Below are positions 40,015-64,000 of a stretch of 64,000 nt of DNA, one piece after another; position 1 is the first letter of the stretch; each line of letters starts with the position of its first letter. Made by a program: the position numbers and the translations under genes. Source of the DNA: Micromonospora chersina (GTDB taxonomy: Bacteria > Actinomycetota > Actinomycetes > Mycobacteriales > Micromonosporaceae); the NCBI RefSeq assembly GCF_900091475.1, contig NZ_FMIB01000002.1:3658001-3722000 (forward strand), written 5' to 3'. The notes beneath the pieces are model-generated. The model saw only the letters and a program-made list of their open reading frames with translations. It had not been told where the DNA came from and ran no database searches.

Positions 40015-40772
40015 GTTACGCCGGCCGGGACAGTCCACCTCGCATGGGAGAGGTCACCAGTCAGATGTCGGTGTCGCTGGACGGGTACGTCGCGGCGCCG
40101 GGGCAGAGCCGGCAGGACCCGCTCGGCCGGGGCGGCCTGCGGCTGCACGAGTGGTTGTTCGCCAGCGAGAGCTGGCGCGAGCGGCACGGGCTGGCCGGCG
40201 GGGACCGGAACGTCGACGCCGAGGTGGTCGACGAGGTCACGGCGGGAGTCGGCGCGTACGTGATGGGGCGCCGCATGTTCGGCGGCGGCGAGGGCGGGTG
40301 GGACCTGGACTGGACCGGCTGGTGGGGTGACGAGCCGCCGTGGCGGGTCCCGGTCTTCGTGCTGACCCACCACCCGCGCGAGCCGCTGGTGATGCGGGGC
40401 GGCACCGAGTTCCACTTCGTCACCGACGGCATCGAGGCGGCGCTGGCGCGGGCCCGCGCGGCGGCCGGCGACCTCGACGTGGCCGTGGCGGGCGGGGGCG
40501 GGACGGTGCGCCAGTACCTGGCGGCCGGGCTGCTCGACTCGCTGTGGCTGCACGTGGTGCCGATCGTCCTGGGCGGCGGCACGCCCCTCTTCGACGGCCC
40601 CGTCGACGCGGTGTGGGAACCGGTCAAGGTGGTCCCCGCCCCCACGGTCACCCACATCCACTACCGGGTCAGAACAGCCGGCCCCGGTACGGATGCGACC
40701 GCTTCCACGTCTCCTCCCACTGAAGCAGCTCCGCCTGCCAGAGCGGAAGCTCAGGATGGTAGTCCCGGATGA
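40011..40772 (+). CDS. Dihydrofolate-reductase-like (RibD C-terminal) protein
   Basis: 253 aa from ATG 40011, overlapping the sigma-factor stop; ATG 40044 (MGEVTSQMSVSLDGYVA) is an equally likely start. It has the RibD_C fold: MSVSLDGYVA (~15-24), AYVMGRRMFGGG, VPVFVLTHHPREPL, LDVAVAGGGGTVRQYLAAGL and LHVVPIVLGGGTPLF. The natural end would be near THIHYRVRT. The last ~30 residues (AGPGTDATASTSPPTE...) are read across the 3' end of the convergent immunity-like gene and look non-native, so the original 3' end may have been replaced. The reductase substrate is unknown. Confidence 0.78.
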   Translation: MSYAGRDSPPRMGEVTSQMSVSLDGYVAAPGQSRQDPLGRGGLRLHEWLFASESWRERHGLAGGDRNVDAEVVDEVTAGVGAYVMGRRMFGGGEGGWDLDWTGWWGDEPPWRVPVFVLTHHPREPLVMRGGTEFHFVTDGIEAALARARAAAGDLDVAVAGGGGTVRQYLAAGLLDSLWLHVVPIVLGGGTPLFDGPVDAVWEPVKVVPAPTVTHIHYRVRTAGPGTDATASTSPPTEAAPPARAEAQDGSPG

Positions 40773-41103
40773 GATGGAGACTGTCCGGGCGACTGGAGAG
40801 GAACGCCCAGTACGCCTCAACCGCCTCGCGCAGTTCGTCGAGGGAATACCGGCCCTTCTCGCCCGCCACCCATTGGTTCTCGAAGTCGATGCCGTCGCTG
40901 GTCAGCGTGACGTCGTACTTGTCGCTGCTCCACTCCTCGAACGGATGCCGACCGTGGGAAACGTCGTCGATCATCGCCAGCGCGTCGAGACAGGCCGCAT
41001 GGTAGATCGAGACGTCGGTGATCAGCCAGGCACCGAGAGCCCGGTATCGCTGGTCGGCGACGTGGAACAGGGGCAGCCGGTACTGGTCGACCGAGAAGGT
41101 CAT
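40669..41103 (-). CDS. Candidate immunity protein 2 (tandem paralogue)
   Basis: 144 aa, alpha/beta, soluble, no signal peptide. It begins MTFSVDQYRLPLFHV and ends SHPYRGRLF, matching the upstream paralogue along its whole length (about 60% identical by eye). The most conserved core is CLDALAMIDDVSHGR-PFEEWSSDKYDV. It overlaps the reductase gene's 3' end by 104 bp (convergent). As the last gene after an EndoU-type nuclease, an immunity role is inferred. The pattern 'EW--D-YDVT....NQW' recalls YacL-type proteins, but I am not sure. Confidence 0.65.
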   Translation of the reverse strand: MTFSVDQYRLPLFHVADQRYRALGAWLITDVSIYHAACLDALAMIDDVSHGRHPFEEWSSDKYDVTLTSDGIDFENQWVAGEKGRYSLDELREAVEAYWAFLSSRPDSLHLIRDYHPELPLWQAELLQWEETWKRSHPYRGRLF

Positions 41104-41111
41104 GCCGACGC

Positions 41112-41555
41112 TCAGAACAACCGCCCCCGATAGGGGTGCGGGCGCTTCCACGTTTCCTCCCAGAGCAGCAGGTCGGCCTGCCACTGGGGCAGGTCCGGGT
41201 GATACTCCCGGATCAGATGGGTTCGCTCCGGCATGCTCACCAGAAAGCGCCAGTACCGCTCCAGCACCTCACGGATCTCCGGGACTGGGTACTCGCCGTG
41301 CTGAAACTCCAACCACTGGTTCTGGAGCGACACCCGTTCGGGCGTGAAGTGGACATCGAACTTGTCGCTGCTCCACTCCTCGAACGGCTGCCGACCGTGG
41401 GAAACATCGTCGATCATCGCCAGCGCGTCCAGGCAGACGCGGAAGTAGATGGAGATGTCGGTGGTCAGCCACACTCCCAGCGCCTCGTAACGTTCGTCGT
41501 CCACCTGGTACAGCGGCAGCTTGAACTGGTCGATCGAGAACGTCATCGAACTCAC
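41112..41555 (-). CDS. Candidate immunity protein 1 (tandem paralogue)
   Basis: 147 aa. GTG 41555 has GGAGG six bases upstream; ATG 41546 is an alternative. It shares MTFSIDQ, CLDALAMIDDVSHGRQPFEE, ETWKRPHPYRGRLF and overall length with the gene that follows it. Differences cluster in the first ~35 and ~80-100 residues. It lies 17 bp after the nuclease gene, the usual place for the cognate immunity gene; the second copy may protect against a variant toxin. Acidic residues dominate, which would suit binding of a basic nuclease. Function is inferred. Confidence 0.68.
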   Translation of the reverse strand: MSSMTFSIDQFKLPLYQVDDERYEALGVWLTTDISIYFRVCLDALAMIDDVSHGRQPFEEWSSDKFDVHFTPERVSLQNQWLEFQHGEYPVPEIREVLERYWRFLVSMPERTHLIREYHPDLPQWQADLLLWEETWKRPHPYRGRLF

Positions 41556-41572
41556 GGATTACCTCCGGGTTG

Positions 41573-42082
41573 TCACACGACAGGCCAGCCGTGCTTCAGT
41601 GCGCCTGTTTGCGGATGGTAGTAGCCCTCGATCGTCAGATTGCGGTACGTGCCGCGCCACGTGCCGTTGGGCAGACGTTGTGCGTTACGGAACGCGCCAC
41701 TGATGGCCGCGTCCACCTCCGCCGGGGTCCAGTGGTCCGGGAAGAAGGAGCTCACTCCCTGGTTACCGCCCTTCGGCTTCCAGGTGCCGGCCGGCGGGTT
41801 GACGGTCGGGTCGAAGTACTCCGGTTGGGCGGTGTAGGCCCGGGTCCGGGGATCCCGCTGTATGGTGCCGGGCTTGAGCCTGCGACCCGGGAAGTCCTGC
41901 CCGCCGGGTCGGTAGTGGTAGCCGGAGCCGGTTGCCATGCCGGGGCGCTCGTGACCGAGAAACACGTGGTCGCGTGAGTGGGCCGTCATACGGCCCGGAC
42001 GGTTGCGCTTGTTGGCGCGCCTCAAATACTGAAGCGCGGCGCGCATCAGGCGGCCGCCGGCCTTCCCCGATCCCTTGGCCAT
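41573..42082 (-). CDS. EndoU-type nuclease toxin
   Basis: 169 aa, basic. The first ~35 residues are an arginine/lysine linker (MAKGSGKAGGRLMRAALQYL). The rest matches the bacterial EndoU nuclease domain of polymorphic toxins: RDHVFLGH (H39, H44), GSGYHYRPG (H56), VSSFFPDHWT (110-119), EVDAAISGAFRNA and YYHPQTGALKHGWPV (154-168). EndoU domains cleave RNA with two His and a Lys. It lacks the long N-terminal secretion region usual in toxins and starts 7 bp after the CpnT-N-like gene, so the translocation part appears to be encoded separately. Start ATG 42082, weak ribosome site. Confidence 0.75.
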   Translation of the reverse strand: MAKGSGKAGGRLMRAALQYLRRANKRNRPGRMTAHSRDHVFLGHERPGMATGSGYHYRPGGQDFPGRRLKPGTIQRDPRTRAYTAQPEYFDPTVNPPAGTWKPKGGNQGVSSFFPDHWTPAEVDAAISGAFRNAQRLPNGTWRGTYRNLTIEGYYHPQTGALKHGWPVV

Positions 42083-42089
42083 CAGCCGG

Positions 42090-42584
42090 TCACCCGTCGA
42101 TCAGTTTCCAGATGACCTCTTGGACGAGGTTGCCGACGATGGTCCGGGCCAGCTGCTGGAAGATCGGGATCTCCAGGAGCGAGGCCCCGAAGGTGACCGC
42201 CGCCGTCGCGACCGCCTGGGCGATCTGGATGGCCAGGACGACGAGTTGCACGATCACGGCGATCTTCAGGGCGAGCACGATCGCGCCGCAGATGATCAGC
42301 CCGGTGCCGGTGAGCACCGCGGCCGTCACCCCGTCGCGCAGGCTGTCGGCGGGGCTGTCCTCCCGGTTCCACCAGGACTGGAAGGCGGTGATGTCCTGGC
42401 CCGAGTGACTGGACCAGACGGTGGCGGCCCCGGTGTTCGCCTCGGCCACGACGCCGGACAGGGTGCCGGAGAAACGGATCCAGGCGTTGCCCATCTCGAA
42501 GAGCTTGACCTCGTCGGCCTCCGGCCACGTGTAGCCGAGGATGCCGAGCAGCGAGCGCAGTTCGCCGGGCAGTTCGAGGCCCAC
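42090..42584 (-). CDS. CpnT-N/WXG-like membrane protein (toxin carrier part)
   Basis: 164 aa from GTG 42584 (GGGAGG six bases upstream). Residues 1-90 resemble the CpnT-like N-terminal domain of T7SS toxins (LPGELRSLLGILGYTWPEAD, then EMGNAWIRFSGTLSGVV). The C-terminal part is hydrophobic, with two long helices (~98-140, LIICGAIVLALKIAVIVQLV). In full toxins this domain is followed by the effector region in one chain; here a stop follows at IDG and the EndoU gene begins at once. It may carry the nuclease as a complex, or the pair may be a split gene. Confidence 0.68.
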   Translation of the reverse strand: MGLELPGELRSLLGILGYTWPEADEVKLFEMGNAWIRFSGTLSGVVAEANTGAATVWSSHSGQDITAFQSWWNREDSPADSLRDGVTAAVLTGTGLIICGAIVLALKIAVIVQLVVLAIQIAQAVATAAVTFGASLLEIPIFQQLARTIVGNLVQEVIWKLIDG

Positions 42585-42586
42585 CG

Positions 42587-42910
42587 TCAGCCTCCCAGCG
42601 CCTGTCGCAGCCCGTCGAAGCCCTGCTTGATGGCGGCCTCGATCCCGGCGTAGCGAACGGCCATGTCGGTGAGGTCGGTGCCGGCGGCGGCGATCTCCTC
42701 CAGGGCGGTGTCGAAGCATTCGAAGGCGAACGCGGAGACCTCGTCGTGAGCGGCGCCGATCAGAGATCCGATGTCGTCGGAGCCCCAGGGCCGGCCGAAG
42801 GCGGCCAACTCGGCCTGGAATGCCGTCATGGCCTCGCTGAACCGGACGGCCACGTCGCCCAGGGCGCGGCCGGAGCCGCCCAGCCCGTCCGGGTCGACCT
42901 CGATGGCCAT
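42587..42910 (-). CDS. WXG100-like protein of the toxin cassette
   Basis: 107 aa, helical hairpin. PWGSDDIGSLIGAAHDEV (~41-58) holds the WGxD turn of a WXG100-type subfamily that lacks strict W-x-G. No signal peptide or TM helix. ATG 42910 sits in a TGATG overlap with the upstream YbaB-like gene's stop. WXG100 proteins are T7SS substrates or chaperone partners; this one probably pairs with the CpnT-N-like protein. Compare the gene at 56908-57201. Confidence 0.75.
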   Translation of the reverse strand: MAIEVDPDGLGGSGRALGDVAVRFSEAMTAFQAELAAFGRPWGSDDIGSLIGAAHDEVSAFAFECFDTALEEIAAAGTDLTDMAVRYAGIEAAIKQGFDGLRQALGG

Positions 42911-43335
42911 CACCGGCCGCCCTGGCCGGACAGCCGGTCCTGGGCCTGGACCAGCGCGTCAGTGAAGGTGGTGAGCTGCCGGCCGGCGTCCTCCTGGATC
43001 CGGCGCAGTTGCTCGCCGAGGGAGCTGAGGTCGACCTGGCCGGGAACGGCGGCGGTCGCCTTCTCCTGGAGGTCGGCGAGGGCCGCGTTGACCGCCGTGC
43101 TGATCTCCTCGGCCAGGGATTCGCTCGGCAGCCGCATCACCCGGGGGTCGAGGGTCAGCGCGGTGACCCGCCCGGGCGGACCGGCCGTCACCCGGACCAG
43201 GCCGTCGGCCGCCTCGCCGACGCCCTCCGGCGGAGCGGGCGCCTCGCCGTCGGCGCCGGCGGTGAACCGCCCCAGCGCGGACATGGTCTCGGACAGCACG
43301 CGGCCGAGGCCGGACGGATCGACGGGCTGGGCCAT
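42910..43335 (-). CDS. YbaB/EbfC-like protein of the toxin cassette
   Basis: 141 aa. A YbaB-type core is visible in DGLVRVTAGPPGRVTALTLD (~44-63) and DPRVMRLPSESLAEEISTAV. It is preceded by a disordered Ala/Gly/Pro stretch and followed by a helical C-terminus. YbaB proteins bind DNA as dimers, but ESX-linked members are thought to be T7SS-associated (EspL-like) chaperones. ATG 43335 has GGAGGAG upstream, so this is the first gene of the cassette. It shares DGLVRVT and the LAE-helix pattern with the gene at 57218-57637. Confidence 0.75.
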   Translation of the reverse strand: MAQPVDPSGLGRVLSETMSALGRFTAGADGEAPAPPEGVGEAADGLVRVTAGPPGRVTALTLDPRVMRLPSESLAEEISTAVNAALADLQEKATAAVPGQVDLSSLGEQLRRIQEDAGRQLTTFTDALVQAQDRLSGQGGR

Positions 43336-53268: not shown

Positions 53269-53610
53269 ATGACGACCATGGCGACGACACCAGGCGAGAA
53301 CGGGAGCGGCCGGAACTGGACCTTCCTCACCAATCACGGCCACGTGCTGCTGGCCATCGCGCGCAACCCCACGGCGCGGCTGCGGGACGTGGCCGAGGAG
53401 GTGGGGGTGACCGAGCGGGCCGCCCAGGCGATCGTCGCCGACCTGGAAGCCGGTGGCTACCTCCAGCGCACCCGGGTGGGCCGCCGCAACGAGTACACGA
53501 TCAACCCGAGCGGGCACTTCCGGCACCCGGCCGAGGCCGACCAGCAGGTGGGCGCCCTGCTCGCCCTCTTCACCACCGACCCCGCCGCGGAGCCGGTGAC
53601 CGAGAGCTGA
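53269..53610 (+). CDS. Winged-helix transcriptional regulator
   Basis: 113 aa. The DNA-binding core reads FLTNHGHVLLAIARNPTARL, RDVAEEVGVTERAAQAIVAD, then LEAGGYLQRTRVGRRNEYTI, a MarR/GntR-like winged helix. There is no ligand-binding domain. ATG 53269 is preceded by AAAGGG. Proteins of this size and type are common in actinomycetes; the targets are unknown, though the divergent carbonic anhydrase gene is a candidate. Confidence 0.85.
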   Translation: MTTMATTPGENGSGRNWTFLTNHGHVLLAIARNPTARLRDVAEEVGVTERAAQAIVADLEAGGYLQRTRVGRRNEYTINPSGHFRHPAEADQQVGALLALFTTDPAAEPVTES

Positions 53611-53669
53611 CCGTCTTCCCACGGCTGCCCGTCACCGCGCGGACGGCGCGGCGACGGTAATCTCACCGC

Positions 53670-54908
53670 GTGCGCGACAGCTTGCGGCCGGACGGGACGA
53701 CGGAGCACGTCCGTACCGGGCACCGGATCCGATCCGTCCTCTCCGGAGTGTCGGTGGCCGCCCTCCTCGGCGGCGTGCTGGCGATGCCCGCGCCCGCCGC
53801 GGCGGCCCCGAAGTGCGGCCCACCCGGCGGCCCCGCCCCCACCGCGGCGCCGTGGGCGCTGAACCGGCTCGACCCGGCCGCGGCCTGGCGGGTCACCAAG
53901 GGACAGGGCATCACCGTCGCGGTCATCGACTCCGGGGTCTCCCCCGCCCACCCGCTGCTGCGCGGCCGGGTGCTCACCGGCGAGGACTTCAACCAGCTCG
54001 CCAAGCTCGACGGGCAGTGCGACCTGGTCGGCCACGGCACCCTGATCGCCGGCATCATCGCCGGGAAGGAGGGCACCGGCGCGCCGTTCACCGGCATCGC
54101 GCCGGAGGCCCGGATCCTGCCGGTCCGCGTGCTCGCCGACAACCAGAAGGCCTTCGACGAGTCCATTCCGGCCGAGATCGGCAAGGCGATCCGGTGGGCG
54201 GTCGACCACGACGCCGACGTGATCAACCTGTCCCTGGTCACCCTCGACGACCCGGCGCTCAGGGCGGCCGTCGACTACGCCCTCGGCAAGGGCGTGATCC
54301 TGGTGGCCGCGGCCGGCAACCGGCAGGAGAACCAGCAGGACCAGCCGGCGTACCCGGCCGCGTACCCGGGGGTCATCGCGGTGGCCGGGGTGGACGAGAA
54401 CGGCGGGCACGTCGGCAGCTCGGTCACCGGGGACTATGTGGACATCGCCGCGCCCGGGCTGAACATCGTCGGCCCCGCGCCGCAGGGCGCCGGCTATCTG
54501 GCCGAGCCGAACGGCGGCACCAGCTTCGCCACCGGGTACGTCTCCGGGGTCGCCGCGCTGGTGCGGGCCGCGCACCCGGACATCAGCCCGAAGGACGTGG
54601 CGTTCCGGCTCACCCGCACGGCCGACAACCCGCCGGACGGGCACAACGCACTGGTCGGGTACGGCGTGGTCAACCCCTACCGGGCCGTGACCAGCCTGCT
54701 GGGCACCCGCAGCGACCCGCCGCTGGGCGCGATGCCGGCACCGGCGCCGCACACCGATCCGCTGGCCTGGCAGCGCACCGTGGCGATCTGGGCGGCGGCG
54801 GTCGGCGCGGTGCTGGCCGGGGTCCTGCTGGCGCTGCGGCCGATCCTGGTCCGGGGCCGGCGGCGCGGTTGGCGCCCCGGCCGTCGGACCGCGCCGCAGG
54901 ACGCCTGA
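53670..54908 (+). CDS. mycP: Type VII secretion-associated mycosin (S8 protease)
   Basis: 412 aa. A signal peptide (~20-46) precedes the subtilisin-like domain with D87 (VIDSGV), H122 (GHGT), oxyanion N217 (AAGN) and S285 (NGGTSFAT). One C-terminal TM helix (~368-388) anchors it, followed by a basic tail. This is the mycosin (MycP) architecture: it sits outside the membrane and processes ESX substrates or stabilises the ESX complex. GTG 53670. It is the first ESX-locus gene and runs convergent to the WXG pair. Confidence 0.93.
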   Translation: MRDSLRPDGTTEHVRTGHRIRSVLSGVSVAALLGGVLAMPAPAAAAPKCGPPGGPAPTAAPWALNRLDPAAAWRVTKGQGITVAVIDSGVSPAHPLLRGRVLTGEDFNQLAKLDGQCDLVGHGTLIAGIIAGKEGTGAPFTGIAPEARILPVRVLADNQKAFDESIPAEIGKAIRWAVDHDADVINLSLVTLDDPALRAAVDYALGKGVILVAAAGNRQENQQDQPAYPAAYPGVIAVAGVDENGGHVGSSVTGDYVDIAAPGLNIVGPAPQGAGYLAEPNGGTSFATGYVSGVAALVRAAHPDISPKDVAFRLTRTADNPPDGHNALVGYGVVNPYRAVTSLLGTRSDPPLGAMPAPAPHTDPLAWQRTVAIWAAAVGAVLAGVLLALRPILVRGRRRGWRPGRRTAPQDA

Positions 54909-55052
54909 CCCGGCTCGGGGCGGGGATCCCGCACGGCGCCGGGGTATGCGCCGGCGCCGGACCCGGCCCGGCGCGCCGGATTCCGGCGTGGAAAAGCACC
55001 ACGGCCCCGACCCCGGCGTGAGCCGGAGCGGAGCCGCAGCGGTTCGGTCGGG

Positions 55053-55331
55053 TCAGCCCCAGACCTTGGAGTTGCTCATCTCGGTGGTCATGTAGTTCTC
55101 GCGCGCGATGCCCACGGCACCGCCGATGTCGTTCAGGACCTTGTTGATGTCCCGCACGGCGGCGTCCCACTGAGCCTGGTGCTGCTCGTAGGCGGCGCGG
55201 TCCTGACCCTCCCACTCGAGCTTGGTCAGCATCGCGCGAAGCGTGTCCAGCTTCTCGTCGATGGTCCGCGAGATGGCCTGCATCTGCTGGTTGCTGCTCT
55301 CGAGGACAGCGTAGTCAACCTTGATGCTCAT
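55053..55331 (-). CDS. WXG100 protein (EsxA-like)
   Basis: 92 aa helical hairpin with W40-E-G42 at the turn (LEWEGQDRAAYEQH). It ends KVWG and lacks a strict C-terminal YxxxD/E. AGGAGG precedes ATG 55331. It lies 28 bp after a second WXG100 gene; the two are the likely heterodimer exported by the ESX apparatus. No signal peptide, as expected. Confidence 0.93.
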   Translation of the reverse strand: MSIKVDYAVLESSNQQMQAISRTIDEKLDTLRAMLTKLEWEGQDRAAYEQHQAQWDAAVRDINKVLNDIGGAVGIARENYMTTEMSNSKVWG

Positions 55332-55359
55332 CGATTCCTCCTCTGCCTGTCTTCGCGGA

Positions 55360-55668
55360 TCACGGGTTGAGAGCAGAGTGGAACTTGTCCAGCATCTGCT
55401 GCTGCTCTTCGTCGTTGACCTGGTGCGTCGTGCCGGACTTGTCAAGCAGGTCGGCGATGTTGTCCATCGCCGTCAGCAGCTTGTTCGTGTCCTCGTTCCA
55501 ACGCAGCATCAGGTTCTGGAAACCCGTGGACGCGCCGCCCTTCCAGGCCATGGCCAGGTCGTCGACGACATTCCACAGCTTCTTGAGCTCACCGTCGACG
55601 TCGCTGCGCGTGGACCGCACGTCACTCGCGGCGGTGTGCAGAGTCGCTGCACTGACCTCGAACGCCAT
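55360..55668 (-). CDS. WXG100 protein (EsxB-like)
   Basis: 102 aa helical hairpin with W42-K-G44 (AMAWKGGASTGFQN). The C-terminus QQQMLDKFHSALNP is longer than in EsxA. An acidic/polar second helix follows. First of the WXG pair in transcription order and the likely carrier of the export signal. GGTGTG/AAGGGTG before ATG 55668. Confidence 0.93.
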   Translation of the reverse strand: MAFEVSAATLHTAASDVRSTRSDVDGELKKLWNVVDDLAMAWKGGASTGFQNLMLRWNEDTNKLLTAMDNIADLLDKSGTTHQVNDEEQQQMLDKFHSALNP

Positions 55669-55873
55669 GCTTCACACCCTTCCGTCATCTCTGTGGCGGC
55701 GGATCCGCCGCGCCCCTCCCCCGCGGCAAGGCGTACACACCCCACCGACGGACACTTCAACCGAACCGTAGCGGACGACGTCCAATCCGCGCAGCCCTGC
55801 ATCCCCATGGCGCACAACGCCGTCCGGCGATCACGACCGTACGAGGTGGACGGTCACGGACACCAGCGGCCAC

Positions 55874-56134
55874 TCAGGACGGCCGCCGGTACGACCTCAG
55901 GTGCATGGCCGCGCCGAAGACCAGCACGACGGCCAGCAGCGCCACGAACAGCCAGAGCACCGGCCTGTCGAGCGCCCGGTCGAGCACCACCGGGATCAGC
56001 GCGGCGACACCGGTGAGCAACACCACCTCGCTGGCCCGCTTCGCCCACGTGGCGCGGGACAACTGGGCGACCAGCGCCAGCCCGATGAAGGCCGGCACGG
56101 TCACCAGGAAGTACACGAAGAGCACCAGCAGCAC
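55874..56134 (-). CDS. Small membrane protein of the ESX locus
   Basis: 86 aa with about three hydrophobic helices (VLFVYFLVTVPAFIGLALVA; VVLLTGVAALIPVVL; WLFVALLAVVLVFGAAMHL) and a short basic tail. GTG 56134 has GGGAAGGGG upstream. It lies 19 bp after the 241-aa gene in the same unit. No known family. Confidence 0.65.
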   Translation of the reverse strand: MLLVLFVYFLVTVPAFIGLALVAQLSRATWAKRASEVVLLTGVAALIPVVLDRALDRPVLWLFVALLAVVLVFGAAMHLRSYRRPS

Positions 56135-56153
56135 CCCGGGGCCCCCCTTCCCG

Positions 56154-56879
56154 TCACTGGTAGAACTTGGAGTCCTGCACCCAGTCGATTTTGATGTCCT
56201 TGATGTCCGGGTCCTGGCCCGTGGCCGCCCAGCCGGGCCGGGAGTCCGACACGAAGGCGAACCGGTCGTTGCCCTGGAAGCCGGCCATGACGGCCGAGAA
56301 CACCGCGCTGATGTCGCCGAAGACGAGTGCCAGGATCGCCGCGCTCGCCACCATCCCGGCCACGCCGATCGCCTCGGCGATGGGCGCGGTCGGCGGGAAC
56401 GCCTGGAGGGCCACCGACGCGATCACCGCGATGAGGATGGGGATGAGCGCGTCGACAAGCGCGTTCACCGCGTCGTTGAAGGCGTCCCGGGCGGAGGTCA
56501 GCGTGTCCTTGTTGGCGTTGAACGCCTCGGCCAGCGAGTTGATCTCGGCACCGAGCTTGCGGAGGAAGAGGTCGAACGCGTCCCGGTCGTCGAAGTCCCA
56601 CTCGGTGTCCGACGGTGGGACCTGCTCCAGCGCCGCGCCGAACTGGTCGCCGCCGAGCAGCCGCGCCGCGTCGCCCCACTCCTTGATGGACTTGTTGACC
56701 TCGTCGTTGTCGAACGTCTCCAGGTAGGCGATGGCGGCGCCCAGCGCCCCGGCGAACACCAGCCACATCCAGTTGGCCCGGGCCGCCGGCAGCAGCCCGC
56801 GCACCGGCGCCGTCGCGGCGGCGACCGTGTGCGTGCCGGTCACCGTGCCGGCCGCGTTGGCGATCAGGATCTCCGACAT
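56154..56879 (-). CDS. ESX-locus membrane/effector-like protein
   Basis: 241 aa. An N-terminal hydrophobic helix (~37-52, WMWLVFAGALGAAIAYLE) is followed by an amphipathic helical region (INSLAEAFNANKDTLTSARD, ~115-134). Two long hydrophobic helices come next (~145-190, LIPILIAVIASVALQAF; GVAGMVASAAILALVFG), then a ~40-residue polar end. The order YbaB-like, WXG-like, then this protein parallels the toxin cassette at 42-43 kb. The hydrophobic C-terminal half recalls the CpnT-N-like gene there, but sequence similarity by eye is weak. Unknown function. Confidence 0.6.
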   Translation of the reverse strand: MSEILIANAAGTVTGTHTVAAATAPVRGLLPAARANWMWLVFAGALGAAIAYLETFDNDEVNKSIKEWGDAARLLGGDQFGAALEQVPPSDTEWDFDDRDAFDLFLRKLGAEINSLAEAFNANKDTLTSARDAFNDAVNALVDALIPILIAVIASVALQAFPPTAPIAEAIGVAGMVASAAILALVFGDISAVFSAVMAGFQGNDRFAFVSDSRPGWAATGQDPDIKDIKIDWVQDSKFYQ

Positions 56880-56907
56880 CAGCTGCCCTCCCCGTCCACC
56901 CGGCCGG

Positions 56908-57201
56908 TCACTTGACCACCCAGGGCTGGTCCGACTTCTCCCAGTTCTTGGCGGTCTGCTCCAGCTGCTCGGCCGCCTTGTGCAGGTGCTCGATGCCCGT
57001 CTTGACGTTCTTCAGGTGACCGTCCACCGAGGCGTTGTGCGCCTGCACTGTCGCGCCGCCGAAGAGGGTCAGCGCACCGTCGGGCAGCTTCACGCTCTCC
57101 AGCAGCGCCTGCACGTTGCGCAGGTACTGGATCGGGCCGTCCGGAGCGTCGAGCTTCTGGCTCGCCTTGCGGATCGCGTCGACGTCGACCTTGTTCGCCA
57201 C
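56908..57201 (-). CDS. WXG100/EspC-like secretion target
   Basis: 97 aa, two helices joined near LFGGATVQAHNASV. It has no strict W-x-G turn, but VDVDAIRKASQKLD and the C-terminal LHKAAEQLEQTAKNWEKSDQ suit a type VII target of the EspC/DUF2580 type. It lies 16 bp after the YbaB-like gene. No signal peptide. Confidence 0.65.
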   Translation of the reverse strand: MANKVDVDAIRKASQKLDAPDGPIQYLRNVQALLESVKLPDGALTLFGGATVQAHNASVDGHLKNVKTGIEHLHKAAEQLEQTAKNWEKSDQPWVVK

Positions 57202-57217
57202 CGCGTCTCCTCCCTGG

Positions 57218-57637
57218 TCAGCGGCGCAGGCCGCGGGTCGGGTCGCTCAGGTCCACCCCGAACTGGCGGAACCAGTCCTCCGGGGTGAGGGTGCCCGCCT
57301 GCGCCTGACGGACCAGGTCCGAGCCACCGAGCATGTCGGTCATCAGCTCCTGCTGCCGTTCGGCGAAGGAGGCGTACGCCGCGTCGATGGCGGCCTGGAG
57401 CGACTCGGCCAGGGTGTAGCTGTCCAGCCGCATGGCCCGGGCGTTGATGTCGATGCCGCCGACCTTCATGTCACCGTCGACGGTCACCCGGACCAGGCCG
57501 TCCGGGCTCTCCCCGGTCACGCGCAGGTCGGCGCGCTGCTGCTGGAACTCCGCCAGCCGGCGCTGCTGCTCCTGCGCCTGGCGCAGCAGGTTCTCCACGG
57601 CGCCGCCGGCGCCGCCGTAACCCCACGAGGTGCTCAC
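57218..57637 (-). CDS. YbaB/EbfC-like ESX-associated protein
   Basis: 139 aa from GTG 57637 (GGAGAG seven bases upstream). A helical N-terminus (VENLLRQAQEQQRRLAEFQQ) leads to a YbaB core, SPDGLVRVTVDGDMKVGGID, then ARAMRLDSYTLAESLQAAID. The C-terminal ~35 residues are extra. Such genes sit directly downstream of eccC in actinobacterial ESX loci. It likely acts as a T7SS accessory or chaperone, not a nucleoid protein. Confidence 0.75.
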   Translation of the reverse strand: MSTSWGYGGAGGAVENLLRQAQEQQRRLAEFQQQRADLRVTGESPDGLVRVTVDGDMKVGGIDINARAMRLDSYTLAESLQAAIDAAYASFAERQQELMTDMLGGSDLVRQAQAGTLTPEDWFRQFGVDLSDPTRGLRR

Positions 57638-57706
57638 TACTGTTCTCTCCTCACCACTGGCGGTCGGGCCGACGCTACCGGACCCGTTCATGGGACGTCC
57701 GCCCCG

Positions 57707-60700
57707 TCACGCGGGCTCCGTCCAGGCGGTCTGGATCAGCTGCTGGCCGTCCCGGCGGCGGACCAGGGTGCCCCGGCCCGGCGGCTGCGGGCTCGGCCGC
57801 AGGTTGCCGAAGACCGCACCCTCCTCGCGGCTGCCGGACATGAGCAGGCCCGGCGAGTCCAGCTCGCGGAGGCGTTGCAGCACCGGCTCGTAGAGGGCCC
57901 GGGCCACGCCGCCCACCCGCCGGGTGATGATCAGGTGGAGGCCGATGTCCCGTGCCTGCGGCAGGAGCTCGTGCAGGGCGCTGAGCGGGTTGTTGCCGCC
58001 CGAGGCGACCAGGTCGTAGTCGTCCACCAGGATGTAGAGCTCCGGCCCCTTCCACCAGCTGCGGTCGCGCAACTGGGCGGTGGTCACATCCGGCCCCGGC
58101 AGCCGGTTCTGCAGAGCGCTGCGGATCGAGCCGAGGCCCTGGCTGAAGACCTGGTTGGACGGCGCGTAGTCGAGCAGGTGGTCGCCCTCGACGGCGCCCA
58201 GCAGACCGCGCCGGTAGTCGGCGATGACCAGCCGGGCCTCGGCCGGCGTGTACCGCTCGGCGATGCCCCGGGCGATCAGCCGCAGCAGGTTGGTCTTGCC
58301 GCACTCGGAGTCGCCGAACACGGTCAGGTGCGGCTCGGTCGTCAGGTCCAGGTAGACCGGGGCGAGCGCCGACTCGTTGACGCCGATCGGGATGCCCGGC
58401 GCCGAGCGGTCGACCACCTTCGCCAGCTCGCCGACCGCCAGCTTGCGCGGCAGCAGCCGCACCTTCGGCGCCGGGCGGCCCGGCCAGTTGGCCGCCACGT
58501 GCCCGGCCAGGGCGACCGACGCCTCGGTGAGGTCCTCGATGTCGCGCTTGCCGTCGATCCGCGAGATCCCGGTGAGGAAGTGCAGCTTGTCGCGGGTCAG
58601 ACCGCGGCCCGGCGTGCCGACCGGCACGTTCTGCGCGGCCCGCCGGTCGATCTCCGACTCGGCCGGGTCGCCGAGCCGCAGCTCCAGCTTGGTGCCGAGC
58701 AGGTCCCGCATGTTGATCCGGATCTCCGCCCACCGCACGGCCGTGATCACCACGTGTACGCCGAAACCCAGCCCGCGGTTGGCCAGGTTCGTGATTGTCT
58801 GCTCCAGCTCCTCGTACTCCTGGCGCAGCGTGTTCCAGCCGTCGACCACGAGGAAGACGTCACCGAACGGGTCGTCGGCGAACTCCCCGGCCGCCCGGCG
58901 TCGCCGGTAGCTGGCCACCGAGTCGATGCCGTGCTGGGTGAACCGGTTCTCCCGCTCGTCGATGACGGCGACCACCTCGGCCACGGTCCGGCGGACCGCC
59001 TCGACGTCCCGCCGCCCGGCCACACCGGAGGTGTGCGGCAGCCCGTCCAGGCTGCGCAGCGCGCCACCGCCGAAGTCGAGGCAGAAGAACTGCACCTCGC
59101 GCGGGGTGTGGGTGAGCGCCAGCGCGGCCAGCATCGTGCGCAGCATGGTGCTCTTGCCGCTCAGCGAGGCGCCGACGATCACCACGTTGCCGCCGGCGCC
59201 GGAGAGGTCGACCATCATGGGGTCGCGGCGCTGCTCGTACGGGCGGTCGACGATGCCCACCGGCACGGTGAGCCGACCCCGCCCCGGCCAGTCCGCGGTG
59301 GTGAGGCCGAACGTCGGGTGCACCTTCAGCGGCGGCAGCAGCTCGGCGAGGCCCGACGGCTCGGCCAGCGGCGGCAGCCAGACCTGGTGCGCCGGGCGGC
59401 CCTGCCCCTTGAGGCGGTCGATCAGCACGTCCAGCATGGCCACCGCCTTGCCGTCGCCGCTCTGCTCCGGCTCGGGCGCGGTCTCGGCCGGGCTCGGCAG
59501 GGCCGGCGCCGGGACGTAGTCGATGCCGTACGGGACGATCCGGCGCTGCACCTGCGCCCGGACCGAGCGCTGCACCTGCCCCGGTGCCCGGTACGGGCCC
59601 GAGACGTAGGCGGCGCGGAACCGGAGCATGGTGGCGGTGTCGGTCTTGAGGTAGCCGTGGCCGGGCGCGCTCGGCAGCTCGTACGCGTCCGGCACGCCGA
59701 GCACGATCCGGCTCTCCACCGCCGAGAAGGTCCGCAGACCGATCCGGTACGACAGGTGGGTGTCGAGTCCCCGGAGTTTCCCCTCCTCCAGCCGCTGCGA
59801 GGCCAGCAGCAGGTGGACGCCGAGCGACCGGCCGAGCCGGCCGATCATCACGAAGAGGTCGATGAAGTCCGGCTTCGCGGCGAGCAGCTCGGAGAACTCG
59901 TCACAGATGATGAGCAGGCTGGGCATCGGCTCCAGCGGCTCGCCCGCGGCCCGGGCCTTCTCGTAGTCGTAGCGCGAGACGTAGTTGCCGGCCGCCCGCA
60001 GCACCTCCTGGCGGCGGTTCATCTCACCGGCCAGGGCGTCCCGCATGCGGTCGACGAGCGGCAGCTCGTCGGAGAGGTTGGTGATGACCGCGCTGGTGTG
60101 CGGCAACGCGTCCAGCGAGGCGAAGGTGGCGCCACCCTTGAAGTCGACAAGGACGAAGTTGAGCTCCTCGGACGAGTGGGTCACGGCCAGCGCCGCGACC
60201 ACCGTACGCAGGAGTTCGCTCTTGCCCGAACCGGTCGCGCCGATGACCAGGCCGTGCGGGCCCATGCCCTCGTGCGCGGACTCCTTGAAGTCCAGCTCCA
60301 CCACGTTGCCGTCCGGCCCGACGCCGAGCGGGATGCGCAGCCGGTCCCGGTGGCTGCGCGGCCGCCAGGTCTGCTGGGTGTCCACTGTGGCGGCGTCGCC
60401 GACGCCGAGCAGGTCCGGCAGCTCCATGCTGCGGGCCAGCGGCTCCTCGGTGCTGGCGCCCTGCTGCTGCGACAGCCGGTAGGGGGCGATCTGCCGGGCC
60501 AGCCCCTCGGCGGCCGCCATGCTCAGCCGGTCCGGCCGGCCCAGCCGGGAGTTGGTCGTGCCGCGGACCAGGTCCAGCCCGCTGCCGTCGCCGGCGTCCA
60601 GGCAGAGCAGCCAGCGGCCGGCGTCGCGGGGCACCGCGCCGGAGAGGTCGATCACGGTGGCGCCCAGCAGGCCCGGTCCCATGAGCGCGCAGGTCGACGA

Positions 60701-61672
60701 GACCTCGCCGCCGTCGAGCACCACCACCACGTGCGGCGCGGTGGTGAGGGGCTTCGCCTCGGGGGCGAACCGGGGCCGGCCGCCCAGCTCGTTGGCGAGC
60801 GCCGCCTCCGCCTCGGCGAGGCTGGCGAAGACCATCCGGCGCGCGCCCGCCGCGTCCGTACGCCCCGGGTGCTGGGCGTGCGGCAGCCACTTCACCCAGT
60901 CCCACACCGGCTGCCGGTCCGGCGCGGCCACCACGGCCACCAGGAGGTCGTCCGGGGCGTGGAAGGTGACGAGCTGACCCAGCGCGGCCCGGGCCAGGTC
61001 GAGCACCGGCTCCCGGTCACCGCGCAACGCGACCCGGCTGAACGCGCGCAGCGACAGCGCGGTCGGCAGGTCCGGCACGCTGGAGTGGGCCCGCACGAAC
61101 CGGCGCAGCGCGATGGCGCTCATCGGCTCCAGGTCCTCCACCGGCTTGGTCTCCGGCGGCACGATCTCCACGGCCAGCCGCTGCGGGCCGAGCGCGATCC
61201 GGGCCTCGCCGAAGTCGTCCTCGGTGATCCGCCGCTCCCACAGCCGGCGCGAGGCGGCGACCGACCACAGCGCGTCCGGCTCCGGGTGCCGCCAGGTCAT
61301 CGCGGCGCGCTGCTGCTCGGCGGCCCGCCGGGTGCGCTTGCGCATCTGGGCCAGGTAGCGCATGTAGTCGCGCCGCTGGGCGTTCAGCTCGGCCTTGTCG
61401 TTGCCGCCGTTGCCGAGCGTGCCGACCGCCATGCCCAACATGGACACGCCGAACAGGCCACCGGCCACGTACGTCATCATGCCGCCGCCGCGGCCCGCGT
61501 AGAGGAAGGCCATCGCGCCGACGCCGCAGAGCATCGGCAGGATCATCAGCACCTGACCCATGCCCTTGGCCTGCGGCTCCGGCAGCTCGGGAGGGGACTC
61601 CAGCAGCACCTCACCGCGCGGCAGCGCGGGTCCCGGTTGACGCGGAAGCCGGCGGAACACCACCGTGCTCAA
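57707..61672 (-). CDS. eccC: EccC, FtsK/SpoIIIE-type ATPase of T7SS
   Basis: 1321 aa as a single chain (not split into EccCa/EccCb). Two TM helices at ~40-58 and ~65-85. Three ATPase domains have P-loops GATGSGKS (478-485), GASLSGKS (834-841) and GDSECGKT (1120-1127). The first domain also has Walker B CDEFSELL (~590-597). EccC drives export and binds substrates at its C-terminal domain. TTG 61672, with GGAGGAG eight bases before it, best fits the family start LSTVVFRR. Divergent from eccD across 171 bp. Confidence 0.95.
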
Positions 61673-61843
61673 CCTTGTCTCCTCCCCAGAGGCGGCCCTG
61701 CTCGTGGTCGGCCGACGCACCCGAGTCGTCGGGTGGGCAACCTGTGCGACCGCCATCGTAGGTAATCTCCCGGAGGCGCCGTGGACCCACGGGGGCGGCG
61801 CCGACGGCCGGGGTGGATCGTAGGCGAGCACGAGGAGGCCACT

Positions 61844-63241
61844 GTGGCGACGAAGACGGCGACCGGCGGGCTGAGCCGGATCACCATCGTGGCGCCGCGG
61901 ACCAGGATGGATCTGGCGCTGCCGTCCGACGTGCCGCTGGCCGACCTGTTGCCGACGCTGCTGCGCTACGCCGGCGAGGACCTCGCCGACGAGGGCGTGC
62001 GGCACGGCGGCTGGAGCCTGTCGCGGCTGGGCGGGCAGCCGCTCGACGGCGGCCGCACCGCAGCGCAGCTCGGCGTCCGCGACGGCGAGGTGCTCTACTT
62101 CAACCCGCGCGCCGCCGCCGCACCCGAGATCGTCTTCGACGACGTGGTGGACGCCGTCGCCACGGCGACCAACCAGCGGGCCGGCGCCTGGCAGGTCGGC
62201 ACCACGCGGGCCTTCTCGGTGCTGTTCGCCGGGGCGGCGCTGGCGGCCGGCGCGGCGGCCACGCTGCTCGCCGGGCCGCCGCAGCTGCCCGGCGCGCTCG
62301 CCGCACTGGTGGTCGCGATCGCGCTGCTGGTCAGCGCCGCGGTGCTCTCCCGGGCCGTCGGCGACAGCCGGACCGGTGCGGTGCTCGCCACGGGTGGCCT
62401 CGGCTACGCCGCGATCGGCGGCCTGCTGGTGCTCGCCGGTGACCGCGGGCTCACCGAGCTGGCCAGCCCGCACGTGCTGCTGGCGGCCACCGCGGTGGTG
62501 CTGTTCGGCGCGGTCGCCGCGCTGGCCGTCGGGGACCGGCTGCCGCTGTTCCTCGGCGCCGTCGGTGTGGGTGTGGCGGTCGGTTTCGGCGCGGCGCTCT
62601 GCCTGGCCTTCGGCATCGGCGCGGCGGCCGCCGCGGCCGTGGTGGCGACCGTGGCGTTCGGCGCGCTGCCGGCGCTGCCGATGATCTCCTACCGCCTGGC
62701 CCGGCTGCCGGTGCCGTCGATCCCGACCGGCCCGGACGACCTCAAGAGCGACACCGAGTCGGTGGACGGGCCGCAGGTGCTGCGCAACAGCGAGCGCGCC
62801 GACGCGTTCCTCACCGGTCTGCTGTGGACGGTGTCGCTGCTGGTGCTCGGCGGCGAGCTGGTGCTCGCCGGCAATGGCCGGCTGCCGGCGGTGCTGCTCT
62901 GCCTCGTGCTGGCCCTCCTCGCGCTGCTGCGGGCCCGGCCGTTCCTCGGCCGCGGCCAGCGCACCCCGGTGCTCCTGGCCGGCACGGTGGGCCTCGGGCT
63001 GGCCGCCGCCGCCACCTTCGGCGCGGGCTCGCTCGCGGTGCGGCTCGGGCTGATCCTGGGCGGCCTGCTGGTGGTGACCGTGATCAGCCTGATCTACGGG
63101 CTCACCGTGGCGGGCAAGCGGATCTCGCCGGTCTGGGGCCGCACCCTGGACATCGTCGAGATCCTGCTGATCGTCGCCCTGGTGCCGCTGGCCGTCTGGG
63201 TCTGCGGCCTCTACGGCTGGATCGTCAACCTTCGACCGTGA
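61844..63241 (+). CDS. eccD: EccD, T7SS membrane pore component
   Basis: 465 aa. An N-terminal ubiquitin-like (YukD) domain (~8-95: [33 protein letters not shown]) is followed by 11 TM helices with a cytoplasmic loop between TM6 and TM7 (~285-315, [20 protein letters not shown]). This is the EccD architecture; it forms the membrane part of the ESX complex. GTG 61844 has GAGGAGG five bases upstream. Confidence 0.95.
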
Positions 63242-64000
63242 CCGTGCCCATGGCGGTGCCCACCGGCGCGGTGGCGTAGACGCCCGGGCCGTGCTGGCCG
63301 TCCAGCGGGCGGGCCGGCACGCCGGAGCGGCGGGCCACGTCCCGGACCACCTTCACGAGCGCCTCGGCGTGGCCGTCCATGGCCGCCACCCGCAGCAACG
63401 GCGGGAGCTGCCGGCCCCCGGGGAGCACGACCGCCGCGACCGTGTGCGACGGGGCGGAGGTGGCGGTCACGGCGTCCACCAGCGCGCCCAGCGAGCCGTT
63501 GGGCCGGACCCGCAGCGCCAGGCACCGCTGCGTCCAGCCGCCGCCACGCAGCCCGGTCCAGCTCTCCACGGGGGACTCCGGAGCCAGGTCGAGGCCGGCG
63601 CCGGAGACCACCGCGGCGTGCAACTCCTCCCGCCCGAGCACCCGGTGGCCGAGGCCGGCCGCGTTGAGGGCCTTGCCGAGCCGGCCGATGCCGGCCGCGA
63701 CCGTGCGGTGCACGCCGCGCAGGCCGCCGCCCCGGCTGACCGTCTCGGCGCGGGCGTCGGCGACCGACAGGCGCAGCGCCACCCACACCGTGCGGTGGGC
63801 CGCCGGGGGCGACCCGGGCGCCGGGTACCAGACCAGGGTGTGCGAGACGACCTGGGTCTGCGTGACCGGCCCGGTGAAGTCGGCGAGCACCGCGAGGGCC
63901 CGGTCCACCACGGCCGCCTCGATCGACCCGGCCTGCGTGCCGGGCCGGCCGGTCAGCGCGACCGCGGCGAACCAGCCCCGGTCGTCCTGGCCGATGCCGA
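63225..64000 (-). CDS. eccE: EccE, T7SS component, C-terminal fragment
   Basis: The frame is open to the right edge, so the N-terminus (two TM helices in EccE) is missing. The visible 258 codons start [20 protein letters not shown] and include [58 protein letters not shown] and [11 protein letters not shown], the EccE soluble domain. Its last 17 bases overlap the convergent eccD. EccE lines the outside of the ESX complex. Confidence 0.9.

What the first reader, a model, noticed from the sequence alone, without database searches (positions are those of the whole stretch)
40669..43335. Six-gene type VII effector cassette with EndoU nuclease
Six co-directional genes, spaced by overlaps or at most ~17 bp, encode a YbaB-like protein, a WXG-like protein, a CpnT-N-like membrane protein, an EndoU-type nuclease and two tandem paralogues. 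EndoU motifs (RDHVFLGH, GYHYRPG, SSFFPDHW) and the WXG/CpnT features are seen directly. Polymorphic toxins with EndoU are known from CDI and T7SS systems; reading this as an antibacterial effector cassette exported by the ESX machine 10 kb away is inference. It lies well outside the core ESX locus, so it may be a mobile or exchangeable cargo unit.
Basis: partly seen in the sequence, partly recalled or inferred. Interest (0 to 1): 0.82.

Follow-up and report, generated by a model that had tools for sequence, protein, structure and literature searches.

The report
Split toxin cassette with separate carrier
A soil bacterium carries a small toxin cassette in which a conserved carrier protein and a predicted RNA-cutting toxin are encoded as two separate proteins instead of one, and the same carrier set is found with many other toxin types in related bacteria.

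Summary
The six genes are real; Pfam confirms EndoU, WXG100_2 and YbaB. The window is from Micromonospora (inferred). The cassette belongs to a modular system: YbaB, a WXG/PE-like protein with a YxxxD/E-type T7SS signal, and a stand-alone 164-aa WXG100_2 carrier, then a separately encoded toxin and one or two presumed immunity genes. In 104 sampled relatives plus the window, this chassis precedes 11 sequence-distinct payload types (EndoU, HNH-like, NS2 nuclease, nucleotidyltransferase and others); about half of the loci have SUKH, SUFU or HEAT-type immunity genes. In 94 of 95 split loci the next gene starts between -11 and +9 bp of the carrier stop. A toxin split from its carrier in Saccharothrix is fused to it in Micromonospora. 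Against M. fulviviridis the chassis is 94-97% identical in DNA, but EndoU 70% and ImmB 79%, with the change at the carrier/toxin junction: an exchanged payload at a fixed site, not a mobile cassette. Most likely this is a polymorphic ESX effector whose toxin rides in trans. Docking, export, toxicity and rescue are inferred, not shown. The literature searches I ran showed no description of this split form.

The parts
42910..43335 (-). YbaB/EbfC-like protein, 141 aa; proposed substrate chaperone (EspH-like role, inferred)
   Evidence: PF02575 7.5e-10; first gene of the chassis in most relatives
42587..42913 (-). WXG100/PE-like helical partner, 108 aa, with the T7SSa-type signal YAGIE at residues 88-92
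   Evidence: 11 of 23 aligned members hit WXG100 at E <= 0.1, best 4.7e-7, the window's own not; at the signal position acidic residue in 180 of 180 and Y/H/F in 163 of 180 rows
42090..42584 (-). Stand-alone WXG100_2 (CpnT-N-like) carrier, 164 aa; long helices, strongly hydrophobic residues about 85-134
   Evidence: PF25547 1.8e-13; model pLDDT 78, pTM 0.58, helices 23-58, 77-131, 139-162 of the 163-aa model; hydropathy
41573..42082 (-). EndoU nuclease toxin, 169 aa, encoded separately; basic N-terminal tail (about residues 1-32) then EndoU domain 35-168
   Evidence: PF14436 7.9e-17; H39, H56, K104 invariant in 25 of 25 aligned sequences
41112..41555 (-). ImmA, presumed immunity protein, 147 aa; the nearest relatives have one immunity gene here, not two
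   Evidence: position and paralogy; gapped in L042, L039 and L043; model pLDDT 93
40669..41103 (-). ImmB, presumed immunity protein, 144 aa, paralogue of ImmA (65% identity)
42083..42089 (-). Carrier/toxin junction (7 bp); approximate breakpoint of the toxin-immunity exchange
53269..63911 (.). Core ESX (T7SSa) locus proposed as exporter: subtilase, two WXG100, YbaB, EccC, EccD, EccE
   Evidence: Pfam; eccB at genome 3722565-3723953, just past the window end

Best explanation
This is a split polymorphic toxin-immunity cassette for type VII (ESX) secretion. YbaB, the small WXG/PE-like protein and the stand-alone WXG100_2 protein form a conserved chassis: chaperone, signal-bearing partner, carrier. 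The EndoU toxin is a separate 169-aa protein, encoded directly behind the carrier, that docks on it through its basic N-terminal tail, is exported with it by ESX, and cuts RNA (by analogy tRNA) in competing bacteria. ImmA and ImmB protect the producer. Shown: gene order, domains, modularity, payload exchange at this site, and split and fused forms of one toxin on one carrier. Inferred: translational coupling, docking, export, target and immunity.
For: Pfam domains above cut-off. Same chassis with 11 sequence-distinct split payload types among 104 loci plus the window, representatives with recognised toxin and immunity families. In 94 of 95 split loci the next gene starts -11..+7 bp from the carrier stop, 70 with the same 8-bp overlap. 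Split and fused forms of one toxin: Saccharothrix toxins (216 and 228 aa) match the C-terminal part of fused Micromonospora proteins at 50-59%, their carriers match residues 2-165 at 35-41%, and the immunity proteins also match. Basic tails on most toxin kinds; NTase and T19, with different bodies, share a homologous tail (z 11.4; 10 of 91 family pairs tested had z > 3, two of them between EndoU lineages). Payload exchange at the junction, also at silent sites (L042: 50-57% against 84-92%). Export signal conserved. EccB co-occurrence. EspH, with a YbaB-like part, binds the ESX-1 substrate EspE and is needed for its secretion (PMC6107294, abstract and passages).
Against: No secretion, binding or toxicity data. 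EccB is near-universal in the genus (150 of 151), so ESX dependence cannot be tested there; in the class sample most matches lie in long open frames, probably fused forms. Tail type does not strictly follow carrier lineage: tail motif needs 7 changes on the carrier tree, and L210 and L211 carriers are 92% identical but carry HNH-like and EndoU toxins with different tails. 7 of 72 cross-genus scan ORFs, all Actinomadura, have a hydrophobic N-terminal segment that could mean another export route or membrane anchoring. The nucleotidyltransferase tail is barely basic (+1) and the DnaQ-like gene directly behind six carriers is acidic. Cargo changes on the Micromonospora carrier tree are few (15 for 14 labels, least possible 13), so exchange between toxin families is mostly old there.
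Confidence: 0.65

Rival explanations
1. Intracellular system: EndoU and ImmA/ImmB act as a toxin-antitoxin or phage-defence pair inside the cell, next to an ESX substrate set that exports only its own helical proteins.
For: The toxin has no export domain of its own. A lone EndoU-immunity pair without chassis exists in G017 (L048), and a chassis without toxin in the same genome (L104).
Against: The carrier is followed within a few bases by sequence-distinct toxins in nearly every split locus (94 of 95). Split and fused forms of one toxin on one carrier. SUKH, SUFU and HEAT immunity families are listed with polymorphic toxins (PMC3482391, passages).
Confidence: 0.2
2. Carrier and toxin are made as one protein by ribosomal frameshifting or stop-codon readthrough, so the split is only apparent.
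For: 77 of 94 resolved junctions put the next gene in the +1 frame of the carrier, and true fusions exist.
Against: Frames vary (77 in +1, 6 in +2, 11 in frame behind a stop), even between close relatives: the window (7 bp, +1) and L042 (6 bp, in frame) have carriers 98% identical. The presence of a start codon is not counted as evidence, since the scan required one.
Confidence: 0.06
3. The toxin is exported separately (by Sec or another route), and the chassis genes only hitch-hike or form a pore on the target side.
For: Hydrophobic N-terminal segments in 7 of 72 cross-genus scan ORFs. The carrier is very hydrophobic. EsxEF is reported to form membrane channels for TNT secretion (PMC7810871, abstract start in search listings only).
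Against: 0 of 92 scan ORFs of the Micromonospora set have such a segment.
Confidence: 0.09

Closest known systems
[quoted passage not shown]
   Same: WXG100-like partner, WXG-like domain, variable toxin and adjacent immunity protein; recombination between cassettes; PEST3 likened there to CpnT with two upstream WXG100 genes
   Different: In PEST the toxin is fused to the WXG domain and the cassettes lie in prophages or PICIs; no YbaB gene is mentioned in the passages seen. Here the toxin is a separate gene and a YbaB gene leads the cassette.
EsxE-EsxF-CpnT (TNT) of mycobacteria
   Same: Small WXG partner(s) upstream of a CpnT-N/WXG100_2 type domain linked to a toxin
   Different: [quoted passage not shown] here carrier and toxin are two proteins and the target is presumably bacterial.
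LXG toxins with Lap partners (T7SSb)
   Same: Helical targeting module plus small helical partners, variable toxin, immunity gene
   Different: T7SSb of Bacillota; the LXG domain is in the toxin polypeptide. PMC10730906 (abstract, passages) says that all T7SS substrates described before TslA share an N-terminal helical domain; TslA has it at the C-terminus.
CdiA-CT/CdiI STECO31 EndoU pair (PMC9086364, passages)
   Same: Bacterial EndoU with His-His-Lys active site and an immunity protein
   Different: Different secretion route and covalent CdiA fusion. By sequence neither the window's EndoU nor its immunity proteins matched that or any EndoU/CdiI structure; by fold the immunity model had no match at E <= 0.001.
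EspH with EspE-EspF of ESX-1 (PMC6107294, abstract and passages)
   Same: YbaB-like protein serving a secreted substrate pair
   Different: No linked toxin-immunity pair is described in the passages seen.

Membership tests
EndoU_bacteria (PF14436) | Profile score above gathering cut-off | tested here: met
   62.3 bits against 25.3
EndoU_bacteria (PF14436) | His-His-Lys catalytic residues (triad as described for CdiA-CT STECO31, PMC9086364 passages) | tested here: met
   H39, H56 and K104 invariant in 25 of 25 aligned sequences; their assignment as the triad is by position, not by structure
EndoU_bacteria (PF14436) | Nuclease activity | not testable with these tools
   needs assay
WXG100_2 (PF25547, CpnT-N-like) | Profile score above gathering cut-off | tested here: met
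   51.2 bits against 27
WXG100 (PF06013) | Profile score above gathering cut-off for the 108-aa protein | tested here: not met
   no WXG100 hit for the window protein; 11 of 23 aligned members match at E <= 0.1, best 4.7e-7
T7SSa substrate | YxxxD/E-type signal after the helical hairpin | tested here: met
   window YAGIE at 88-92; acidic residue in 180 of 180 rows, Y/H/F in 163 of 180 (some rows are the same genome fetched twice); strict YxxxD/E in 104 of 156 distinct sequences against 29.4 by shuffling
T7SSa substrate | ESX-dependent secretion | not testable with these tools
   needs a secretion assay
Polymorphic toxin system (Zhang et al. 2012, PMC3482391, passages) | Variable toxin domains on a conserved trafficking module | tested here: met
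   11 sequence-distinct split payload types on one chassis
Polymorphic toxin system (Zhang et al. 2012, PMC3482391, passages) | Toxin fused C-terminally to the trafficking domain | tested here: not met
   separate genes in the window and 94 other loci; fused in 9 related loci
Polymorphic toxin system (Zhang et al. 2012, PMC3482391, passages) | Adjacent immunity gene that neutralises the toxin | tested here: inconclusive
   adjacent genes present; several sister cassettes have SUKH, SUFU or HEAT proteins; neutralisation untested
PEST cassette | Toxin fused to the WXG domain | tested here: not met
   toxin is a separate gene
PEST cassette | Location in a prophage or PICI | tested here: inconclusive
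   neighbours shared with close relatives speak against it, but no phage-gene search was run
UPF0231 (PF06062) | Profile score above gathering cut-off for ImmA/ImmB | tested here: not met
   17.6 and 15.4 bits against 25; 7 of 21 aligned members match at E <= 0.1, best 2.2e-4

The most novel reading that the evidence does not exclude
Actinobacterial ESX systems export toxins that carry no secretion domain themselves: a dedicated, reusable carrier complex (YbaB, WXG/PE-like, WXG100_2) takes many unrelated toxins in trans by a short N-terminal tail, so that payloads are swapped as whole genes. This would break the rule that a T7SS effector domain is covalently joined to its helical targeting domain.
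Probability: 0.55. Interest if true: 0.8.

Novelty: new variant of a known kind. Interest (0 to 1): 0.64.

Why it matters
T7SS effectors described so far carry their helical targeting domain in the same polypeptide (PMC10730906, abstract). Here a family of cassettes, with free carriers in loci of 14 named genera, separates carrier from payload. If export in trans holds, it explains how payloads are swapped cleanly at a gene boundary, gives a ready set of matched carrier, toxin and immunity genes for testing how ESX recognises substrates, and suggests that small 'orphan' nuclease genes behind such carriers in actinomycetes are secreted weapons. It also gives YbaB-like proteins a testable role as chaperones outside mycobacteria.

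Tried and rejected
Frameshift or readthrough fusion of carrier and toxin: held unlikely because frames differ between close relatives. 'Mobile unit': rejected as stated; in lineage A the neighbours are shared and the payload is what differs. Selection alone as the cause of toxin divergence: rejected, because silent sites diverge as well. Tail strictly specific to carrier lineage: not supported. Immunity fold: no PDB match at E <= 0.001 (best rows are large viral polymerases at E 0.09 or worse, taken as chance) and no convincing solved sequence relative (best E 0.025, a DNA endonuclease, short stretch). EndoU has no convincing solved sequence relative by HMMER (best E 0.49; 62, none). The carrier profile likewise (best E 0.24). 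The WXG100_2 model could not be fold-searched. No complex prediction was made; none of my tools offers one. Which of the two EccB-bearing loci of the genome would export the cassette cannot be told. Whether ImmA or ImmB is the cognate partner cannot be told from the trees (open forks).

Errors corrected: the junction scan took the first ORF of at least 100 aa between -14 and +45 bp. A recount found 89 of its 95 picks end like a called gene. Of the other six, L039, L042 and L043 are frame shadows whose EndoU starts at +6; L049 and L052 are EndoU though not called as genes; L134 is a shadow, its toxin being called from +33 with the true start unresolved. Hence 94 of 95 and the corrected frames. 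In six loci the gene behind the carrier is the DnaQ-like one, which may not be the toxin. Shadow picks in L172, L173, L185, L188, L191 were dropped but not; the suspect pick L195 was left in both, so the 21 clusters are an upper figure and I use the genus set. L163 was fetched with a wrong end and dropped. L048 and L060 had no carrier. The tail motif was written after seeing the sequences, so its expectation is no independent test. The charge control (902 genes) includes the toxins themselves. Pfam was run on one representative per payload cluster, and the immunity genes of NS2, T17, T19 and the nucleotidyltransferase type were not scanned.
Full report
OBSERVATION. The six minus-strand genes are present as described. 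Pfam gives YbaB_DNA_bd 7.5e-10, WXG100_2 1.8e-13 and EndoU_bacteria 7.9e-17, all above the curated cut-off; the 108-aa protein has no hit above cut-off, and the two paralogues only UPF0231 hits below cut-off. NCBIfam adds only a sub-cut-off YbaB hit. The core ESX locus lies at about 53.3-63.9 kb, with EccC, EccD, EccE, a subtilase, two WXG100 proteins and its own YbaB. EccB matches twice in this genome; one copy lies just past the window end.

ORGANISM AND SPREAD. The nearest named relatives of the carrier are Micromonospora (the M. fulviviridis contig NZ_BMRA01000001.1 has the same length as contig C1 of G097), so the window is Micromonospora or very close; this is inferred. EndoU relatives occur in 26 of 151 genomes of the genus, own genome included (one of these, G008, is a weak match with stops inside). 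Matches to the WXG100_2 carrier occur in 128 of 151, which includes weak matches to very long open frames. A scan of GTDB contigs found 262 relatives, of which the best 80 were kept; their titles name 14 genera, among them Actinoplanes, Asanoa, Dactylosporangium, Actinomadura, Thermomonospora, Saccharothrix and Glycomyces, and gene calls show a free carrier of about 163-166 aa in each of the 14. In the class sample, 23 of 345 genomes match the carrier profile at E <= 1e-15, mostly in much longer open frames, so fusion is probably the common form there and the free carrier the special one.

ONE CHASSIS, MANY PAYLOADS. I fetched 27 loci from the EndoU search and 80 from the carrier search (the 80 were taken down the ranking, with a choice of fused ones, and are not exhaustive). 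Two had no carrier and one was cut wrongly, leaving 104 plus the window. Behind the carrier were: HNH-like 40, EndoU 26 (window included), DnaQ-like plus nucleotidyltransferase 6, YwqJ-like deaminase 5, three unknown types 5, 4 and 2, NS2 endonuclease 4, three singletons, nine fused carrier-toxin proteins (six unknown, three papain-like), and one chassis without a toxin. These are BLAST clusters; two of the singletons may be distant kin of other types (weak Pfam hits to a nucleotidyltransferase, 0.008, and DddA-like, 0.082). Pfam on representatives: Endonuclea_NS_2 1.8e-28, NTP_transf_2 1.6e-7, Gln_amidase 1e-14; YwqJ only 0.0012 (below cut-off); the HNH-like label is mine, from a conserved DH..ELQLGG pattern recalled as HNH-like, and has no Pfam support. 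Immunity representatives: SUKH-4 8.3e-27 and 8.2e-17, SUKH-3 1.3e-23, SUFU 6.4e-11, HEAT 2.3e-6; two others of the eight scanned, those of one HNH-like branch and one singleton, had none. By cluster membership 50 of 94 fetched split loci have a SUKH or HEAT type gene downstream, and two singletons add a SUKH-4 and a SUFU.

THE SPLIT. In 94 of 95 loci with a free carrier and a payload the next gene starts -11 to +7 bp from the carrier stop; 70 share the same 8-bp overlap; in L134 the start is unresolved. In six of the 94 that gene is the DnaQ-like one. The frames of the 94 are 77 in +1, 6 in +2 and 11 in frame behind a stop; they differ between near-identical carriers (window and L042), so a programmed fusion is unlikely. 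On the carrier tree the 96 free carriers, including the toxin-less L104, are parted from the nine fused ones by one branch. The strongest evidence that free carrier and free toxin belong together is: in two Saccharothrix loci the 216- and 228-aa toxins match the C-terminal part (starting between residues 169 and 199, ending between 355 and 362, of 360-365 aa) of fused Micromonospora proteins at 50-59% identity, the free carriers match residues 2-165 at 35-41%, and the immunity proteins match at 27-43%.

TAILS. Free toxins of most kinds begin with a basic tail: mean net charge of the first 40 residues is +3 to +10 by family, against -1.5 (sd 4.3, 95th percentile 8) for 902 genes of 100-260 aa from the fetched loci, toxins included. 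The linker of seven fused proteins is +9 to +12 over 45 residues. Exceptions: the DnaQ-like gene (-4) and the nucleotidyltransferase (+1). The nucleotidyltransferase and the unknown type T19 have different bodies but homologous tails (z 11.4), and their carriers are sisters; of 91 family pairs tested 10 had z > 3, the highest being two EndoU lineages. Against a strict code: carriers of L210 and L211 (Actinomadura) are 92% identical but carry HNH-like and EndoU toxins with different tails, and the tail motif needs 7 changes on the carrier tree (shuffled mean about 14). 7 of 72 cross-genus scan ORFs have a hydrophobic segment before the tail, 0 of 92 in the genus set (both sets hold a few shadow picks).

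PAYLOAD EXCHANGE. Against M. fulviviridis (L042), YbaB, WXG and carrier are 94-97% identical in DNA; four flanking stretches 96, 94, 88 and 98%; EndoU 70%, ImmB 79%, ImmA missing. Four-fold silent sites agree at 84-92% in chassis and one flanking gene but at 50-57% in toxin and immunity genes. The change lies at the carrier/toxin junction, near 42,088; the other boundary, beyond ImmB, is less sharp. For chassis against payload L039 and L043 give the same picture (silent sites 77-88% against 43-57%), but parts of their flanks are missing or align poorly. The toxin-immunity segment therefore most likely came from a more distant lineage while the chassis stayed. At larger scale, cargo needs 15 changes for 14 labels on the carrier tree, the least possible being 13; EndoU is in three separate groups, starred branches forcing at least 3 changes. 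In L166 and L168 a fused cassette sits near orthologues (69-75%) of the window genes at 37116 and 38405, i.e. in the neighbourhood that the split cassette occupies here; the other fused loci examined there (L160, L164, L169, L171) showed no such neighbours.

EXPORT. The WXG/PE-like protein has the YxxxD/E-type signal (window YAGIE, residues 88-92): acidic residue in 180 of 180 rows, Y in 117, H in 28, F in 18; strict YxxxD/E in the last 45 residues in 104 of 156 distinct sequences against 29.4 by shuffling (that this is the T7SSa signal is recalled, and named in a passage of PMC6107294). EccB is present in 22 of 23 class genomes with the domain and 99 of 322 without (Fisher 4e-10); relatedness is not corrected for, and most of these matches are long-frame forms. 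The carrier is modelled as long helices at pLDDT 78, pTM 0.58, and its C-terminal half is very hydrophobic and conserved. EspH, part of which is predicted YbaB-like, binds EspE and is needed for its secretion in M. marinum, and the authors propose a chaperone role (PMC6107294, abstract and passages).

TOXIN AND IMMUNITY. H39, H56 and K104 of EndoU are invariant in 25 of 25 aligned sequences, fitting the His-His-Lys triad reported for CdiA-CT STECO31, which cuts tRNA-Glu in the anticodon loop (PMC9086364, passages). Which RNA is cut here is unknown. The immunity model is confident (pLDDT 93) but has no PDB match at E <= 0.001.

LITERATURE. The listings and passages of PMC3482391, PMC10654092, PMC4182475, PMC9086364, PMC6107294, PMC11217815 and PMC10730906 (up to 12 passages per look-up, no paper read whole) showed no free WXG100_2 carrier with a separately encoded toxin. 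The nearest are PEST cassettes, where the toxin is fused. YbaB occurs 0 times in the held text of PMC3482391 and of PMC11217815. The library lacks most subscription papers, so absence here is weak evidence.

VERDICT. A real, widespread and modular cassette; a new variant of polymorphic T7SS toxin systems in which carrier and payload are separate proteins. Export in trans is the bold and testable part.

Noticed in passing
L104 and L048 (both genome G017): A chassis with no toxin ORF behind its carrier, and elsewhere in the same genome a lone EndoU-immunity pair with no chassis beside it.
   Followed up: partly
L194, L203, L205, L210, L219, L224, L235 (Actinomadura): Toxin-slot ORFs with an extra hydrophobic N-terminal segment before the basic tail.
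   Followed up: partly
L210 and L211: Carriers 92% identical in two Actinomadura species carry unrelated toxins (HNH-like and EndoU); L210 also has a further EndoU-like gene 118 bp behind its second SUKH-like gene.
   Followed up: partly
L135, L137, L140, L141, L151, L157: A DnaQ-exonuclease-like gene (label recalled from its sequence, not scanned) stands between carrier and nucleotidyltransferase; it may be part of the payload or of the protection.
   Followed up: no
window 56908-57637: The core ESX locus has its own YbaB gene followed by a 97-aa protein without Pfam hit, similar to the order of the first two cassette genes.
   Followed up: no
L194, L210, L219, L203, L224, L234, L246, L238, L055-L059, L225, L229, L245, L218: A short tail motif (G-I/L/V-F-x4-W/F-L-R like) occurs in EndoU, HNH-like and other toxins; noticed first, then counted (17 ORFs in 5 clusters; L245, L225 and L229).
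   Followed up: partly
genome G000:C2 3281559-3282035: A second, stronger WXG100_2 domain in a 1439-aa open frame elsewhere in the genome, possibly a large fused effector.
   Followed up: no
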